Source: Thermoproteota archaeon
Lineage (GTDB): Archaea > Korarchaeota > Korarchaeia > Korarchaeales > Korarchaeaceae
NCBI GenBank assembly: GCA_030130125.1
Contig: JARZZM010000029.1
Location: 1-49,654 of the forward strand
Direction of reading: 5' to 3'
DNA length: 49,654 bases
Positions 19,994 to 24,889 of this stretch are shown in pieces. Both the position numbers and the translations under genes were made by a program. The notes under the pieces were generated by a model. The model was not told where the DNA came from and did no database searches. It saw nothing but the letters and a program-made list of their open reading frames with translations. Positions within the stretch are counted from its first letter, which is position 1, and each line of letters opens with the position of its first letter.

Positions 19994-20385
19994 TCAGGGG
20001 ATCAACCTGATCCCGAGTCCGTTGAAGTGCTTCCTATCCATGGTGGCTAGATCCGATCCTGAAACGGACGCGGTGGCGGCCACCAATATGTCGCTGAAGG
20101 GTATCGGTCTCCCCTTCCTCCTCAGCTTGGTATCAAGTTCTAAGGCCCTGACCAGGATGTCCTGGTCTGGTTCCACGATCATCCCAATTTCGTGAAGTAG
20201 ATCCTTCCTACCCATTGCTGCATCAGATCCTCTAGCCAGATAGTGGCCGAAGAGGTATTCGTAGGCCACTACCCAGGGATCATTATCCTCTCATACTCAG
20301 CGATCAGATCAACGAGTTCTTCCCGGCCTCTGTCCAGCAGTTCGATCAGGAAGGATGTGTCCAAAACGACGTTACCACCACTCAC
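19994..20385 (-). pseudogene. vapC: VapC PIN-domain toxin, broken by a single-base frameshift
   Basis: The N-terminal part reads from GTG at 20385 (GGNVVLDTSFLIELLDRG, with the first PIN aspartate) and runs into a stop after IMIPG. The C-terminal part (VAYEYLFGHYLARG, FSDILVAATA, ATMDRKHF, carrying the other acidic residues) is in another frame, open up to 19994. Restoring one base in the C-run at about 20275-20279 would give IMIPWVVAYEYL, a normal PIN sequence of about 130 residues. So this is either a recent inactivation or a sequence error. It overlaps the intact antitoxin gene. Confidence 0.8.
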
Positions 20386-20605
20386 GTGACTCGACCTCTT
20401 TGACGATCTCCTCAACTTTATCGGCCTCTTCTTCACTCAGTCTCGAGCTCCTGACGAGATCCTTCAGTCTTTCCCTCTTCCTCTTCAGATATTCGTCTAT
20501 AAGCCTGTCTATGGTCTCACCTAGGCTTTTAGCCCTCATTCTCTCCTTGAGAGATTTGAGCCTCCTGTAGGTGTCCTCCCTAACCGAGATTACTTTACCC
20601 ATCAT
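20372..20605 (-). CDS. vapB: VapB-type antitoxin (ribbon-helix-helix)
   Basis: 77 residues: a short DNA-binding strand (KVISVREDTYRRLKSL), helices ending in SLGETIDRLIDEYL, then a charged tail (SEEEADKVEEIVKEVESREW) that would wrap the toxin. It should neutralise the VapC encoded downstream and repress its own promoter. The toxin start lies 14 bases inside this gene. The reading frame is intact even though the toxin frame is not. Confidence 0.8.
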   Translation of the reverse strand: MMGKVISVREDTYRRLKSLKERMRAKSLGETIDRLIDEYLKRKRERLKDLVRSSRLSEEEADKVEEIVKEVESREWW

Positions 20606-20812: not shown

Positions 20813-21898
20813 ATGAGCACGTCTCAGAAGCTCGAGCTGCCCCTCGAACCCCAAGCTTTCGCTGAGGACATATTCAGGATAGTGAGCCATCCCGTCATGC
20901 AGGAAGTCTACCGGTTCAGGCACCTCATAGCCAAGGCCGTGAGGGACTTCTTGGATGGAGAGGGCTTTGTGGAGTTCGATCCCATAATGGTTGGTCCAGT
21001 AACGGATCCCGGCACGAGAGGCGCGTTCGAGTTCCGGATCCCCTACTACGGCAGGGAGTACAGGTTAATGAGGAGCGGTATCCTATATAAGCAGCTCCTG
21101 GCCGCGGCAATGGAGGAGGGTAAGATTTACTTCTTCTACCCAAACCTGAGGCATGAACCGATAGATGCCGCCAAGACCGGGCGCCACCTCGTGGAGTTCG
21201 TCCAGATAGACTTGGAGGTCAGGGATGCGGATCACTTCCAAGTGATGAAGATAGCAGAGAGGCTGCTCAAGCACGTTATCGATGAGATGAAGAGGTACGA
21301 GGACCGCCTCCGAAAGATATGGGAGTTCTTCGGCTCTGAGAGGGAGAGCCTACCAGATGTGAAGCTCCCCTTGAAGAGGATGACCCATAGAGAAGCGGTA
21401 GAGCTTCTGATGAAGCATGCTAAGGATGATAAGGTCCTCAAAGAGCTGGAGAGCAGGTTTGACGTCAAGAGACCGCAGGATAGGCTTAGTTTCAAGGCCG
21501 AGATTCCCTGGGAGTGGGAGTGGTACTTGTCAAAGATACACGACCAGCCCTTCTTCATCCACGACTATCCGAGGGGGGCGAGAGGTTTCTACGACCGTGA
21601 ATACCCTGACAAACCGGGCATACTGATGGACTTCGACCTGCTCGCTCCAGAAGGTCACGGGGAGCTCTCCTCAGGCGCGGCGAGGGAGTACGAGGTGTCG
21701 AGAGTCTTCGCCAGGATGAGGGAGACCAACGAGAACCCCGAGCTCTATCGCTGGTACCTCCAGTTCCTCCGCGATCACGGAAAGCCGACGGCGGGATTCG
21801 GTATAGGAATGGAGAGATTGGTGAAATACATCTGCGATCTCCCGTCCGTGCACCTCGCCAGACCGGCTCCCAAGATACCGGGGGTGCACTCGCCATGA
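20813..21898 (+). CDS. Archaeal-type asparagine synthetase (AspRS-derived)
   Basis: 361 residues from ATG 20813; the frame is open further upstream but that stretch is AT-rich promoter DNA. It is a class II synthetase core without an anticodon-binding domain: motif 2 around Arg113 (NLRHEP), and motif 3 GFGIGMERLV at 328-337 with Arg335. This is the pattern of the archaeal asparagine synthetase that arose from aspartyl-tRNA synthetase and uses ATP, aspartate and ammonia. A truncated AspRS with another function is the main alternative. The stop overlaps the next start by 4 bases, linking it to a glutamate-synthase-like gene. Confidence 0.85.
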   Translation: MSTSQKLELPLEPQAFAEDIFRIVSHPVMQEVYRFRHLIAKAVRDFLDGEGFVEFDPIMVGPVTDPGTRGAFEFRIPYYGREYRLMRSGILYKQLLAAAMEEGKIYFFYPNLRHEPIDAAKTGRHLVEFVQIDLEVRDADHFQVMKIAERLLKHVIDEMKRYEDRLRKIWEFFGSERESLPDVKLPLKRMTHREAVELLMKHAKDDKVLKELESRFDVKRPQDRLSFKAEIPWEWEWYLSKIHDQPFFIHDYPRGARGFYDREYPDKPGILMDFDLLAPEGHGELSSGAAREYEVSRVFARMRETNENPELYRWYLQFLRDHGKPTAGFGIGMERLVKYICDLPSVHLARPAPKIPGVHSP

Positions 21899-23325
21899 CC
21901 GACTACCCGATAGACGAGATATTTAGGAGGGCCAAGCTGGGTGAGCAAGCTGTCTATCCTCCCAAGGACGAGTTCGGTTACAACGTCTTCGGAGCTGACG
22001 TCTATACGAGGCCGAGGAGGTTCCTCCTTCTAGATGACATAGTCTTGCTTCCGCCCCAGTTCACGCCTGAGAGGCTTGAAAAGGGGATTGAGCTCCTCAG
22101 GGAGCCCCTCTACACAGATGTGAGCTCAGAAACCTCTGTAGGCGGGTTCAGGGTGAGGATGCCCGTCGTCTGCGCGGCCATGGGGGGCACGCACATCGCC
22201 AACCTGATAGGTCCCAAGATAGCTAGGGGATGCGCCGAGATGGGCGTCGTCTACTCGCTTGGGGAGAACATAGCCGCCATCAGGGGATACGATGAGAGGC
22301 TCACCAAACAGCCATCATTCAAGGAGAGGGCCTTGGCCTACTTGGAGAACCTGAAAGACGGGTACGGGGGGCTCGTCATACAGCAGAGCGTCGAGGATGA
22401 GAATCTGAAGCTCTGGGAGAAGGTCTACACGGATCCGGACTTCGATCGATACGTGGAGGAGGGGTTGATAGCCTTCGAGATCAAGGCGGGACAGGGCGCC
22501 AAGCCCGGCTTAGGCGGGGAGGTGCTAGTCAGCAGGGAGGTGGCCCTGAGAATAAAGGATCACTACTACATACCGGAGGACCCGGAGAAGGTGGTCAAGG
22601 ACTACTACGAGAGGCATTCAGCACCTGGAACATTTACCGAGGACATACTGGCCAGTCAGATCAGGCTAATCAAGAACAACTTCCCCCGCGTGAAGGTGTT
22701 CCTGAAGACGGGACCTTACAGGGACTTGGATAGGGTGATAGAGATAGCGAGCAGGGAGGGGGTGGACGCAATAACGATAGATGGTAAGGAGGGAGGAACT
22801 GGGATGAGCCCCATTGCTGGCATGAGGGACTTGGGCCTCCCCACCGTGGCCTGCCTAGGGGCCATCACGAGGGCTAGAGATAGGGAGATAAGGACCAGCC
22901 TCATAATATCGGGCAGGTTGTATGACGGCTCCCACGTGGTCAAATCCCTAGCACTGGGAGCCAGCGCGGTGGCGTTCGGGAGGCCCTTGGTATACGCCTG
23001 CATGGGCAGCATACCCCTCGCTCCCACTTTCATTAGGAGGGAGCTCTTCAGGAATCCGTTGCTGAGGGAACTGGGTAAGATAGCCCTGAGGTGGGGAGTA
23101 AGGGGAGAGGGCTGCACCAAGGGCGTGGTGAACTACTTGAAGAGCGTGGAGAACGAGATCAAGATGCTCACCTCCGCCCTAGGAAAGTACCACATGGATA
23201 GGCTGTCCAAGGAGGATGTCGGTGCCCTTAACAGGGATCTAGCGGAGCTCTTTAGAATCAGGTACGTGTATAGCGCTCCTGAAGCGCCAGAGAAAGTGAT
23301 TCAAAGAGGGATTGAACTTTCCTGA
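21895..23325 (+). CDS. FMN-binding glutamate synthase-family protein (GltB central domain)
   Basis: 476 residues. FEIKAGQGAKPGLGGEVL, ITIDGKEGGTGMSP and the ALGASAVAFGRP segment are the FMN and glutamate-site motifs of the glutamate synthase alpha-subunit barrel. There is no glutaminase domain, and the usual cysteine triplet for the iron-sulfur cluster is not visible after the barrel (one Cys in GEGCTKG). Archaeal stand-alone GltB-like proteins of this size exist; some act in other flavin-dependent amination or redox steps. Translation is coupled to asparagine synthetase, which suggests joint nitrogen assimilation. Confidence 0.85.
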   Translation: MTDYPIDEIFRRAKLGEQAVYPPKDEFGYNVFGADVYTRPRRFLLLDDIVLLPPQFTPERLEKGIELLREPLYTDVSSETSVGGFRVRMPVVCAAMGGTHIANLIGPKIARGCAEMGVVYSLGENIAAIRGYDERLTKQPSFKERALAYLENLKDGYGGLVIQQSVEDENLKLWEKVYTDPDFDRYVEEGLIAFEIKAGQGAKPGLGGEVLVSREVALRIKDHYYIPEDPEKVVKDYYERHSAPGTFTEDILASQIRLIKNNFPRVKVFLKTGPYRDLDRVIEIASREGVDAITIDGKEGGTGMSPIAGMRDLGLPTVACLGAITRARDREIRTSLIISGRLYDGSHVVKSLALGASAVAFGRPLVYACMGSIPLAPTFIRRELFRNPLLRELGKIALRWGVRGEGCTKGVVNYLKSVENEIKMLTSALGKYHMDRLSKEDVGALNRDLAELFRIRYVYSAPEAPEKVIQRGIELS

Positions 23326-23368
23326 TGGTATCCGCTGAAGATGAAGTATTTTGAAGTGAAGCGGAGAA

Positions 23369-23755
23369 TCAGCACTTAATCACTGTTACGGACTTAATGC
23401 AGTAATCTATCTCCACTCTGGCTCTTTCTAAAGCTTCTCCACCTATTATGATCTCGTTTAACCCCTCATAACTTTCTAGCAGTCCGTCAACCTTGTAATC
23501 ACCTGAGATAAGCGTGGAATAACCTCCCATAGATTTGATAACTCTGCCATCCGGCAGGACCAAGTGCCTCTCGGTAGAAGGTCTTATACCTAGCTTGTGG
23601 AGAACCTCGCTTGGTACCAGAGCGAAGCCCTCATATCCCGTATCTAGAACACCCCACTCCTCCCCCAACTCAGGATATACCTTCCCGCTGAGAGGATTGT
23701 AGAATTTGACTCTAATGTAGGGGATTTGATCAACCACGCTCAAGTACCCTAGCAC
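23369..23755 (-). CDS. Clan AA (retropepsin-like) aspartic protease
   Basis: 128 residues. Catalytic motif WGVLDTGYEGFALVP with Asp38-Thr39-Gly40, followed by the second-half hydrophobic motif NEIIIGGEALERARVEID. This is one half of a pepsin-like fold, active as a dimer. GTG start at 23755, 26 bases inside the upstream ribbon-helix-helix gene, so both are one message. The arrangement looks like a toxin-antitoxin cassette with a protease in the toxin slot. Substrate unknown. Confidence 0.75.
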   Translation of the reverse strand: MLGYLSVVDQIPYIRVKFYNPLSGKVYPELGEEWGVLDTGYEGFALVPSEVLHKLGIRPSTERHLVLPDGRVIKSMGGYSTLISGDYKVDGLLESYEGLNEIIIGGEALERARVEIDYCIKSVTVIKC

Positions 23756-24056
23756 CTGCCCGAGCTAAGGGCTTAGGGGGAGGTAGGGCCCTCACCGTAA
23801 CGGTACTGGGATCAATACCCTTGGATTTTAGAATCTCAGCGAGTTCTTCGAGGGAAAGTGCCCTAGCTACTTCTTTTCCCCCCACTTCAGCTATGAATAC
23901 TCGTTTAAACTCAGATTCTAGTAGAGCCCTCTCTATAGCCGATGAGACGAACTTTGACAGCGCTCCTCTTCCGGCCCCTCTCTCCTTAAGATGCTTCCTT
24001 AACCTCCGGAGCAGATCATCGGGTATCACGACGGTTAAGGTCCCCATACCCACCAA
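23730..24056 (-). CDS. Ribbon-helix-helix (CopG/VapB-like) protein
   Basis: 108 residues (GTG 24056) or 106 (ATG 24050). N-terminal TLTVVIPDDLLRRLRKHLKE with GALSKFVSSAIERALLE is a ribbon-helix-helix DNA-binding domain. The C-terminal half (EVARALSLEELAEILKSKG) is helical and ends in a proline-rich tail. TATA-like TAAATAAATAG at about 24080-24090 is 25-30 bases before the start, so the message is probably leaderless. Likely autoregulator and partner of the aspartic protease encoded next. Confidence 0.7.
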   Translation of the reverse strand: MVGMGTLTVVIPDDLLRRLRKHLKERGAGRGALSKFVSSAIERALLESEFKRVFIAEVGGKEVARALSLEELAEILKSKGIDPSTVTVRALPPPKPLARAGARVLERG

Positions 24057-24196
24057 CTTTTTATTGTGTAATTACTTACTATTTATTTATGTATGTTTCG
24101 CTGAAGCACTCAAACCCAAGTCGAAGGATCTTGCCGATAGAATGAGGGTCCTATGGCTTCTCAAAAATCGTATGATCCATTCTTGCTTGATATACC

Positions 24197-24889
24197 CTAA
24201 CAGCAGTCTAGGATCTCTGAAGGTCTACCTATGGACCCTACCACTCCATTTTCAACGATCACAACTCTGTCCGCCGTCCTCAGGGCTAGCAAGTGGTCAT
24301 GAGTGGCAATGACTATCCCCATACCCTCCGATCTCAACTTTCCTATGAGGTTCGTCAGGATAACCCTCTTCTCCCTGTCAAGATGAGCCGTAGGTTCATC
24401 CAGTAGAAGTATTTTTGGGCCAGCAGCCACTGCTCTGAGGATCGACACCACCTGCGCTTCCCCTGCAGACATCTCTCTCCTATCCTTCCGAGATAGGTAG
24501 GCCGAGCTCGTATCACTGAGCAGCTCTTCCGCAATCTTGATCGCCTCCTCCCTAGGCACGCCCCTCAGCAGAGGGGCAAAGGTCACATTATCCAAGGCCG
24601 TTCCCCTCAGGAGGATAGGCTTCTCGTGAACATAAACCACCGTCCTCCTTAGCTCAAGCCTCTTGGATCCATTCACCTCCCATATATTCGATCCCCAGAA
24701 CGTGACCTCTCCCCTCGAGGGCCTGTAGAGACCCCCAGCTAACTTCAGGATGGTGGTCTTCCCGGAACCATTGGGACCCACCAAGGCGAGCACTTCACCC
24801 CGCCTGATCTCCAAGCTCACCCCCCTCAGAGCCCACTCCTTAGATCTTGGGTACCTGAACCAGACTTCCCTCAACTCTATCCCGTTCAT
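24197..24889 (-). CDS. tupC: Tungstate ABC transporter ATPase
   Basis: 230 residues. Walker A GPNGSGKT at 38-45 (Lys44), signature MSAGE, Walker B ILLLDEP, and switch region IATHDH. Belongs to the molybdate/tungstate/sulfate importer ATPases. It overlaps the permease stop by 4 bases. Assignment to tungstate comes from the TupA-like binding protein at 25526-26410. Confidence 0.85.
   Translation of the reverse strand: MNGIELREVWFRYPRSKEWALRGVSLEIRRGEVLALVGPNGSGKTTILKLAGGLYRPSRGEVTFWGSNIWEVNGSKRLELRRTVVYVHEKPILLRGTALDNVTFAPLLRGVPREEAIKIAEELLSDTSSAYLSRKDRREMSAGEAQVVSILRAVAAGPKILLLDEPTAHLDREKRVILTNLIGKLRSEGMGIVIATHDHLLALRTADRVVIVENGVVGSIGRPSEILDCC

What the first reader, a model, noticed from the sequence alone, without database searches (positions are those of the whole stretch)
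23369..24056. Ribbon-helix-helix protein paired with a clan AA aspartic protease, laid out like a toxin-antitoxin module
The two genes overlap by 26 bases and share a likely leaderless promoter. The first protein is VapB-like, but the second is a small DTG aspartic protease, not a PIN nuclease. A protease in the toxin position would be a different kind of module.
Basis: partly seen in the sequence, partly recalled or inferred. Interest (0 to 1): 0.55.

Follow-up and report, generated by a model that had tools for sequence, protein, structure and literature searches.

The report
Protease gene with obligate small partner
A small HIV-protease-like enzyme gene in an archaeon overlaps a gene for a small partner protein, similar pairs recur in other archaea and in cyanobacteria, and the pair behaves in genomes like a poison-and-antidote set that uses a protease, although no toxicity has been tested.

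Summary
The pair is real, on the minus strand: a 105-aa ribbon-helix-helix (RHH) protein (24047-23730) overlapping a 124-aa DTG protease (23743-23369). The 26-base overlap is uncertain: a sister genome cannot use that start, so 14 bases is likelier. The protease models as a retropepsin (pLDDT 94.5; Rickettsia retropepsin Z 12.1). The partner is not VapB-like: it is RHH, a DUF5678-type domain and a disordered tail with an invariant glycine. The pairing is widespread: 16 of 17 DTG[FY] proteases read in the window's phylum, 10 of 10 other archaeal loci, and 75 adjacent pairs in 146 cyanobacterial genomes (0.02 expected). The cyanobacterial partners scanned lack RHH, so the constant element is the DUF5678-like domain. 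DUF5678 genes found without reference to proteases precede a clan AA protease in 18 of 29 loci read. Damaged protease beside intact partner was seen 15 times in cyanobacteria and 4 in archaea; the reverse once in each. The window pair has an empty site in a sister genome; relatives sit on plasmids and inside a BREX locus. Best reading: a toxin-antitoxin-like module with a retropepsin effector. Rival: a switch whose substrate is the partner. Toxicity, inhibition and cleavage are untested.

The parts
23730..24047 (-). Partner gene, 105 aa: RHH + DUF5678-like domain + disordered C-terminal tail (ATG start; alternative TTG at 24056)
   Evidence: start codon conserved in the 20 loci compared
23910..24047 (-). 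RHH DNA-binding domain, residues 1-46
   Evidence: Model m82f6a93c5811; best Z 6.0 to NikR over 44 residues, also Arc, CopG, RelB DNA-binding domain
23778..23903 (-). DUF5678-like strand-strand-helix-strand domain, residues about 49-90
   Evidence: Model strands 50-55, 58-63, helix 66-75, strand 84-88; profile of 24 archaeal partners vs DUF5678 hhalign probability 94%, RHH control 5%; L014 relative above the Pfam cut-off for DUF5678
23733..23777 (-). C-terminal tail, residues 91-105, with invariant Gly98 (RAGAR); candidate protease-binding or cleavage peptide
   Evidence: pLDDT under 50 for residues 95-105; G98 the only invariant column in 24 archaeal partners
23369..23743 (-). Retropepsin-like aspartic protease, 124 aa (TTG start; alternatives GTG 23755, GTG 23737)
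23636..23644 (-). Catalytic D34-T35-G36
   Evidence: Invariant in 29 aligned proteases
23441..23452 (-). Second retropepsin motif III-G101
   Evidence: G101 invariant in 29 aligned proteases
23730..23743 (-). Gene overlap, 14 bases with the shared TTG start (26 with GTG 23755, 8 with GTG 23737)
24080..24089 (-). TATA-like box (tatttattta on the + strand), 33-42 nt before ATG 24047
   Evidence: resemblance only
23324..24190 (.). Segment of 867 bases replaced by 136 bases in sister genome G016 (empty site)
   Evidence: Flank matches end at 23323 and resume at 24191; L169 2929 and 3066

Best explanation
A two-gene, toxin-antitoxin-like module whose effector is a retropepsin-type protease. The first gene makes a neutraliser: a DUF5678-like domain with a flexible tail that binds the protease and keeps it off (inferred), carried in archaea by an RHH dimer that also binds and represses the shared promoter (inferred). 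The second, overlapping gene makes a single-domain DTG protease that should dimerise to be active (established for retropepsins; inferred here). If the partner is lost or titrated, the freed protease cleaves host proteins and slows growth (inferred). Shown here: the two domain architectures, gene order and overlap, conservation of the pair, change of the partner's N-terminal part while the DUF5678-like domain stays, presence-absence polymorphism, plasmid and defence-locus locations, and preferential decay of the protease beside an intact partner. Not shown: binding, inhibition, toxicity, targets.
For: Window's phylum: 16 of 17 DTG[FY] proteases have an RHH-type partner directly upstream, the 17th (L024) an HTH protein; 0 of 13 others do (30 of 37 matches read; Fisher p 1.2e-7). 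Scan with 5 close proteases: 19 of 19 loci have a partner; 6 repeat window-phylum loci, 10 are other archaea, 3 bacteria. Cyanobacteria, 146 genomes: 127 partner hits, 126 protease hits, 75 partner-then-protease neighbours, 0 on opposite strands; 0.02 expected by chance. Independent entry: DUF5678 searched alone in 148 genomes of the phylum of a Ferroglobus bin; 18 of 29 loci read (of 30 returned, 42 matches listed) have a D[TS]G protease next, one truncated; 10 of these 18 were scanned and all 10 match Pfam aspartyl-protease families at E<=0.01, 4 above the cut-off. Decay: in cyanobacteria 15 intact partners with truncated, interrupted or stop-bearing protease versus 1 intact protease with a damaged partner (sign test p 5e-4); in archaea 4 (L029, L315, L320, L321) versus 1; one plasmid case adds to the first kind. 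Mobility: empty site; 9 plasmid records, 4 read, 3 with the protease overlapping by 4 nt, one inside BREX-1 between pglX and pglZ, one beside a ParD/ParE-type pair on a conjugative plasmid. Active-site residues conserved.
Against: No toxicity or binding data. Two intact proteases have damaged partners: L087/L317 (frameshift in RHH) and G351:C98 (partner frameshifted and joined in frame to the protease, tail lost); in G237 an IS630-like element sits between the genes and both stay intact. Partner-only loci exist: about 20 of 49 unpaired cyanobacterial partners had no protease by tblastn with 10 queries, and L312 in archaea, so the partner may have a role of its own. DTG[FY] alone does not predict the partner: 8 DTGFNG proteases of the Thermoproteota sample have none and 3 follow longer genes. 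Pfam finds neither RHH nor DUF5678 in the three bacterial partners scanned; the profile match of cyanobacterial partners to DUF5678 is modest (hhalign 60%) and to the archaeal domain directly weak (8.6%). No phage or viral-contig relative of the window protease. The decay asymmetry would also arise if the partner were simply the useful half. Intactness was judged from open frames, mostly in draft genomes.
Confidence: 0.45

Rival explanations
1. Regulatory switch: the partner is the protease's substrate. A signal activates the protease, which cuts the partner in its flexible tail or linker, relieving repression by the RHH domain or destroying another partner function, as ImmA does with the repressor ImmR.
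For: Disordered tail with an invariant glycine is a plausible cleavage peptide. Makarova 2009 describes Zn-protease (COG2856)-Xre repressor pairs proposed to work this way (passages). An orphan protease would lose its purpose, which also predicts the decay asymmetry. Partner-only loci are explained as stable repressors.
Against: The bacterial partners scanned (3 of 3) and the DUF5678 partners scanned (10 of 10) show no RHH domain, so repressor cleavage is unlikely as the common mechanism. Plasmid, BREX and presence-absence patterns fit a selfish or defence module at least as well.
Confidence: 0.3
2. Subunit, chaperone or adaptor: the partner is needed to fold, dimerise or target the protease, and the pair does ordinary proteolysis.
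For: Tight gene coupling and near absence of intact pair-type proteases without a partner. One in-frame joining of partner and protease, though of damaged sequence.
Against: Sister clan AA proteases stand alone (0 of 13 paired in the phylum; 0 of 28 in the Binataceae phylum). Partners persist after protease loss. A DNA-binding domain on a chaperone would be odd.
Confidence: 0.15
3. Ordinary coincidence or annotation artefact: an RHH gene that happens to overlap a protease gene.
For: RHH genes are common in archaea (recalled); the Pfam scores in the window are weak or absent.
Against: 75 pairs observed against 0.02 expected; conserved order, strand and overlap in several groups.
Confidence: 0.01

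Closest known systems
Type II toxin-antitoxin modules (RHH antitoxin first, e.g. VapBC, ParDE, RelBE)
   Same: Small overlapping two-gene operon, DNA-binding partner first (archaea), patchy, plasmid-borne, several copies per genome, effector decays before partner
   Different: Effector is a retropepsin-fold protease, not a nuclease, gyrase poison or kinase; constant partner domain is DUF5678-like; no toxicity shown
TIGR03698 clan AA aspartic protease (clan_AA_DTGF) / COG5550 single-domain prokaryotic clan AA peptidases
   Same: DTG motif, size, fold; paired relatives score above the cut-off
   Different: The window protein scores 51.6 bits against a 57.35 cut-off; nothing I saw links the family to a partner gene
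DUF5678 (PF18929)
   Same: Middle domain of the partner; L014 relative above the Pfam cut-off; profile match 94%
   Different: The window partner itself gives no Pfam DUF5678 match at E<=1; here the domain is joined to RHH
ImmA-ImmR / COG2856-Xre protease-repressor pairs (PMC2701414 passages)
   Same: Protease gene coupled to a DNA-binding protein gene, sometimes near TA and mobile elements
   Different: HEXXH zinc protease and Xre helix-turn-helix there; DTG aspartic protease and RHH/DUF5678 here
Rickettsia retropepsin-like protease (PDB 5c9b, 5c9f), Pseudomonas RloA/RimB
   Same: Prokaryotic retropepsin fold (Z 12.1 to 5c9f, rmsd 2.2 over 110 residues)
   Different: RloA and RimB are in operons with ATP-grasp proteins (PMC12239564 passages), not with an RHH/DUF5678 partner
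PADLOC models 'protease' (PDLC01052) and PEPT_D, aspartyl protease in the type III operon in Sulfolobales
   Same: Clan AA-type protease in a defence setting; matches to the window protease E 6.1e-5 and 0.011
   Different: The similar loci seen here (L075, L078, L082) follow longer genes and show no RHH/DUF5678 partner

Membership tests
Type II toxin-antitoxin module | Two small overlapping or adjacent genes, partner first, same strand | tested here: met
Type II toxin-antitoxin module | Effector alone is toxic and partner neutralises it | not testable with these tools
   needs expression assay
Type II toxin-antitoxin module | Effector and partner bind each other as proteins | not testable with these tools
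Type II toxin-antitoxin module | Partner has a DNA-binding domain and autoregulates | tested here: inconclusive
   RHH in archaea; no RHH found in 3 bacterial and 10 DUF5678 partners scanned; AT-rich inverted repeats near promoters in some loci only
Type II toxin-antitoxin module | Patchy and mobile distribution | tested here: met
   Empty site; plasmids and BREX locus
VapBC | VapB-family antitoxin | tested here: not met
   No VAPB_antitox match at E<=1
VapBC | PIN-domain toxin | tested here: not met
   No PIN match; retropepsin model
Clan AA retropepsin-like peptidase | D-T/S-G catalytic motif and hydrophobic-hydrophobic-Gly motif | tested here: met
   D34 T35 G36 G101 invariant in 29
Clan AA retropepsin-like peptidase | Retropepsin fold | tested here: met
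   pLDDT 94.5; Z 12.1 to 5c9f, 11.2-11.8 to HIV-1 protease rows
Clan AA retropepsin-like peptidase | Dimer with proteolytic activity | not testable with these tools
   needs biochemistry
TIGR03698 | Score over the curated cut-off | tested here: not met
   51.6 vs 57.35 bits for the window protein; paired relatives L003-L006 pass
DUF5678 (PF18929) | Pfam score over gathering cut-off | tested here: not met
   No match for the window partner; relative L014 passes; profile-profile 94%
ImmA-ImmR type pair | HEXXH zinc protease with Xre repressor | tested here: not met
   DTG retropepsin fold and RHH

The most novel reading that the evidence does not exclude
A previously undescribed class of toxin-antitoxin-like or defence module in archaea and bacteria: an HIV-protease-fold toxin held inactive by a DUF5678-domain antitoxin whose disordered, invariant-glycine tail occupies the active-site cleft; the DNA-binding part of the antitoxin is interchangeable. 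DUF5678, a family of unknown function, would be a family of natural retropepsin inhibitors.
Probability: 0.4. Interest if true: 0.82.

Novelty: new variant of a known kind. Interest (0 to 1): 0.62.

Why it matters
Only a few prokaryotic clan AA peptidases have been characterised (PMC12239564 passages), and Pfam lists DUF5678 as of unknown function. Linking the two gives both a testable role at once. If the partner is an inhibitor, it would be a natural protein inhibitor of the retropepsin fold, the fold of HIV protease. If the protease is toxic when freed, proteolysis joins the effector activities of TA-like modules, in a form shared by archaea and cyanobacteria.

Tried and rejected
VapB-PIN reading: rejected, no VapB or PIN match. 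RHH as the essential partner part: rejected as a general rule, since the bacterial and DUF5678 partners scanned show none. 'All DTG[FY] proteases are paired': rejected; in the Thermoproteota sample 8 DTGFNG ones are alone and 3 follow longer genes. 'Only DTG[FY] proteases take a DUF5678 partner': rejected; the 18 proteases next to DUF5678 genes are all D[TS]G[AS].

Natural partner-protease fusion as proof of contact: one 241-aa open frame (G351:C98) looked like one, but it is a frameshifted partner joined in frame, so it was not used as support. A scripted check of the loci held at that time found no other. PADLOC and PHROGs gave no clear family for the window partner; PDB sequence search with the protease gave nothing at E<=1. 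Fold search of the partner found its RHH part only; nothing clear for the DUF5678-like part, which does not show that its fold is new. Viral contigs: no relative of the protease; phage records: none. The first alignment was too diverse for a contig scan, so a narrower one was used.

Rows left out: 7 of 37 matches in the phylum scan had no locus and were not read. 3 of 52 unpaired cyanobacterial partner hits are not in the counted set (49 read); they were fetched later and their frames only looked at. Locus L161 of 30 DUF5678 loci was not read. Six loci had no readable frame (L092, L097, L099, L110, L112, L121). Of 51 unpaired cyanobacterial proteases 7 had no D[TS]G motif in the frame read. 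In the decay count L301 is borderline (ends early but keeps DTG); L256 (both genes damaged) and L278 (possible remnant) were not counted, nor L174 (protease gone, partner frameshifted). Paired genes without a listed stop were not all read, so both decay counts are lower bounds. The protease table was cut off by the tool. Of 9 plasmid records, 4 were read. In the Thermoproteota partner search 15 of the returned loci were read; other long hits had no locus.

Literature: 10 searches of the held library. None of these combinations returned a paper: clan AA aspartic protease + AbrB; aspartic protease + toxin-antitoxin + ribbon-helix-helix; retropepsin + archaea + operon; retropepsin + toxin-antitoxin; aspartyl protease + ribbon-helix-helix + archaea; aspartic protease + toxin-antitoxin + cyanobacteria; six terms including novel toxin and aspartyl. 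DUF5678 appears in one unrelated paper (listing), COG5550 in two (listing), clan AA aspartic protease in six (listing). Subscription journals are mostly not held. Papers seen as passages only: PMC2701414, PMC2642776, PMC12239564.

Full report
What is there. The finding sits in an archaeal genome of 1.5 Mb in 66 contigs; the nearest named records are metagenome bins labelled Thermoproteota or Crenarchaeota archaeon. Its phylum holds 29 genomes in the collection searched; that this is Korarchaeota is my guess and was not established. Both genes are on the minus strand. The partner gene runs 24047-23730 (105 aa; a TTG nine bases earlier would add three residues) and the protease gene 23743-23369 (124 aa from TTG; 128 aa from GTG 23755). 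The 26-base overlap belongs to the GTG start. In sister genome G015 an in-frame stop directly precedes the TTG at -14, so that GTG cannot be used there, and the -14 TTG recurs in the more distant L009 and L012; I take 14 bases as the likelier overlap.

The protease. It matches TIGR03698 (clan_AA_DTGF) at E 9.8e-14, but at 51.6 bits it stays below the curated cut-off of 57.35; Pfam gives nothing at E<=1. In an alignment of 29 paired proteases only D34, T35, G36 and G101 are invariant: the catalytic triplet and the second retropepsin motif. The model has mean pLDDT 94.5. Its best structural matches are a retropepsin-like protease of Rickettsia (Z 12.1, rmsd 2.2 over 110 residues) and many HIV-1 protease entries (Z 11.2 to 11.8). 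Retropepsins work as dimers with one DTG per subunit (established knowledge), so a dimer is expected here too.

The partner. Pfam gives only weak RHH matches (RHH_6, E 0.0025). The model (mean pLDDT 77) shows RHH at residues 1-46, a strand-strand-helix-strand unit at 50-88 and an unstructured tail from 95. The RHH part matches NikR, Arc, CopG and the RelB DNA-binding domain (Z up to 6.0; such values alone are modest). In 24 archaeal partners the only invariant column is Gly98, inside the disordered tail. The middle unit is related to DUF5678: a profile of the archaeal domain against DUF5678 proteins gives hhalign probability 94%, with 5% for the RHH part as control, and the relative L014 passes Pfam's own cut-off for DUF5678. 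The window partner itself does not match DUF5678 directly.

The pair is conserved. In the window's phylum, 18 of 29 genomes have a TIGR03698 match at E <= 0.01. Of 30 loci read (37 matches listed), 17 carry DTG[FY]; 16 of these have an RHH-type partner (by Pfam or by alignment) just upstream whose frame overlaps the protease frame, and the last, L024, has a helix-turn-helix protein instead. None of the 13 others (DTGA, DTGS, DSGA, NTG or broken) has an RHH partner (Fisher p 1.2e-7). A scan of one genome per species with a profile of five close proteases found 19 loci, all with a partner. Six repeat window-phylum loci; ten are other archaeal contigs (Archaeoglobales, Ferroglobus, Nitrososphaerales, Jordarchaeia, Thermofilaceae and others), all with RHH-type partners; three are bacterial (a Binataceae bin, Microcystis, Crocosphaera) with a partner of about 91 aa in which Pfam finds no RHH. 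In the Thermoproteota-phylum sample of 200 genomes, 15 loci from a search with the partner alignment were read: 11 are followed by a full-length DTG[FY] protease, three by a damaged one (L320 cut by a stop, L315 cut after DTGFEG, L321 only a C-terminal remnant), and L312 by none that I could see.

The partner's constant element is not RHH. In cyanobacteria the partner has an N-terminal helical-looking stretch, then the GK-IVAID-TG unit and a tail often reading RFGGR. Its profile matches DUF5678 at hhalign probability 60% and the archaeal domain directly at only 8.6%, so this step rests on gene order and on modest profile evidence. Coming from the other side, I searched DUF5678 alone in 148 genomes of the phylum of G033, a Ferroglobus bin. 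Of 29 loci read, 18 have a D[TS]G[AS] protease directly downstream (one, L141, truncated). Ten of these pairs were scanned: all ten downstream proteins match aspartyl-protease families of Pfam at E<=0.01, four above the cut-off, and all ten partners match DUF5678 above the cut-off with no RHH at E<=0.1. DUF5678 is therefore a protease-partner domain, with or without RHH.

Counts in cyanobacteria. In the same 146 genomes I found 126 TIGR03698 matches and 127 partner matches. Of these, 75 are partner-then-protease neighbours on the same strand, none lie within 400 nt on opposite strands, and 7 pairs of hits lie in the reverse order within 400 nt, which I take to come from tandem arrays such as L285 and L304. 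Chance would give about 0.02. I then read all 51 unpaired proteases: 44 have a D[TS]G motif, of which 42 are followed by A or S and two by F or Y. In one of these two, G237, an IS630-like transposase gene lies between an intact partner and an intact DTGF protease; in the other, G332, the DTGY protease is interrupted by an insertion beside an intact partner. As an outside control, in the Binataceae phylum none of 28 newly read proteases is of DTG[FY] type and none shows such a partner.

Which gene breaks. Of 49 unpaired cyanobacterial partners read, 12 have an intact partner followed at once by a truncated or interrupted protease: L250, L252, L257, L258, L261, L263, L274, L275, L284, L286, L288, and the borderline L301; about 20 have no protease that tblastn with ten queries could find. 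Three more pairs have a stop inside the protease (G029:C322, G283:C156, G364:C6; two re-read), while no paired partner hit has an internal stop. That makes 15 damaged proteases with intact partners. The reverse was seen once in this set (G351:C98). In archaea the count is 4 (L029, L315, L320, L321) to 1 (L087/L317). A plasmid copy in Oscillatoria also has an intact partner and a protease cut just before the TG of its active site. For the 15 to 1 count the sign test gives p 5e-4; counting G237 as a second exception gives p 2e-3. The cases are not all independent by descent and most genomes are drafts, so these values are a guide.

Mobility. The window pair lies between a 476-aa gene (21895-23325) and an ABC-transporter ATPase-like gene (24197-24889). 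In sister genome G016, whose first flanking gene is 96% identical, the 867 bases between the two flank matches shrink to 136, and the pair is absent. In G011 the protease is gone and the partner frameshifted. G015 and G018 carry the pair in the same place. In PLSDB the cyanobacterial partner is on 9 plasmid records. Of 4 read, 3 show it overlapping a gene annotated clan AA aspartic protease by 4 nt; one sits inside a BREX-1 locus between pglX and pglZ (Nostoc pNSMS101), another next to a ParD/ParE-type pair on a conjugative plasmid. No phage or viral-contig relative of the window protease was found.

Reading. The best-supported mechanism is a toxin-antitoxin-like module: the DUF5678-like domain and tail hold the protease inactive, RHH (where present) adds autoregulation, and loss of the partner frees the protease. 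A tidy geometry is that an RHH dimer would present two tails to a protease dimer, but this is inference. The main rival is that the partner is the substrate, making a regulatory switch like ImmA-ImmR (pairs of this kind: PMC2701414 passages). Against it as the common mechanism: the partners scanned outside the RHH group have no recognisable DNA-binding domain. A chaperone or subunit role is the third option. The decay asymmetry favours 'the protease is the costly half', but would also follow if the partner had a use of its own; partner-only loci keep that open. None of binding, inhibition, cleavage or toxicity was tested.

Novelty. Each family is known and annotated; the plasmid records name the proteases 'clan AA aspartic protease' and their neighbours 'hypothetical protein'. 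I found no paper in the held library that links the two or proposes a retropepsin as a TA effector, under the searches listed in Tried and rejected; the library misses most subscription journals. I rate it a new variant of a known kind (a TA-like module with a new effector class), with moderate confidence in function and high confidence in the gene association.

Noticed in passing
window 19994-20605 (-): A VapBC pair: VAPB_antitox gene 20605-20372 intact (E 8.5e-10), while the PIN gene is split into two ORFs in different frames (20436-20269 and 20269-19994), so the toxin is frameshifted or the assembly has an error.
   Followed up: partly
L075, L078, L082: Thermoproteota DTGFD-type proteases lie directly downstream of 322-394 aa genes; the one in L075 has a RAMP-like GRGTAGYGTF stretch (my recognition, not scanned). 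PADLOC has a model for an aspartyl protease in the type III operon in Sulfolobales.
   Followed up: no
L024 (G001:C85): A DTGFDG protease overlaps by 4 bases an upstream helix-turn-helix-like protein instead of an RHH/DUF5678 partner; possibly a third kind of partner.
   Followed up: no
L163 (Nostoc plasmid pNSMS101): The cyanobacterial pair lies inside a BREX-1 locus between pglX and pglZ.
   Followed up: partly
L087/L317 (G113:C17): Intact DTGFEG protease next to a partner frameshifted in its RHH part: an exception to the decay asymmetry, or an assembly error.
   Followed up: yes
G145 and G201: Two genomes of about 1.5-1.6 Mb carry 12 clan AA protease matches each; the role of so many copies is unknown.
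   Followed up: no
L368 (G351:C98): A frameshift joins a cyanobacterial partner core in frame with its protease, a 241-aa open frame that has lost the partner tail.
   Followed up: yes
L279 (G362:C96): A partner without protease is followed by a gene whose start resembles a Phd/YefM-type antitoxin (my recognition, not scanned).
   Followed up: no
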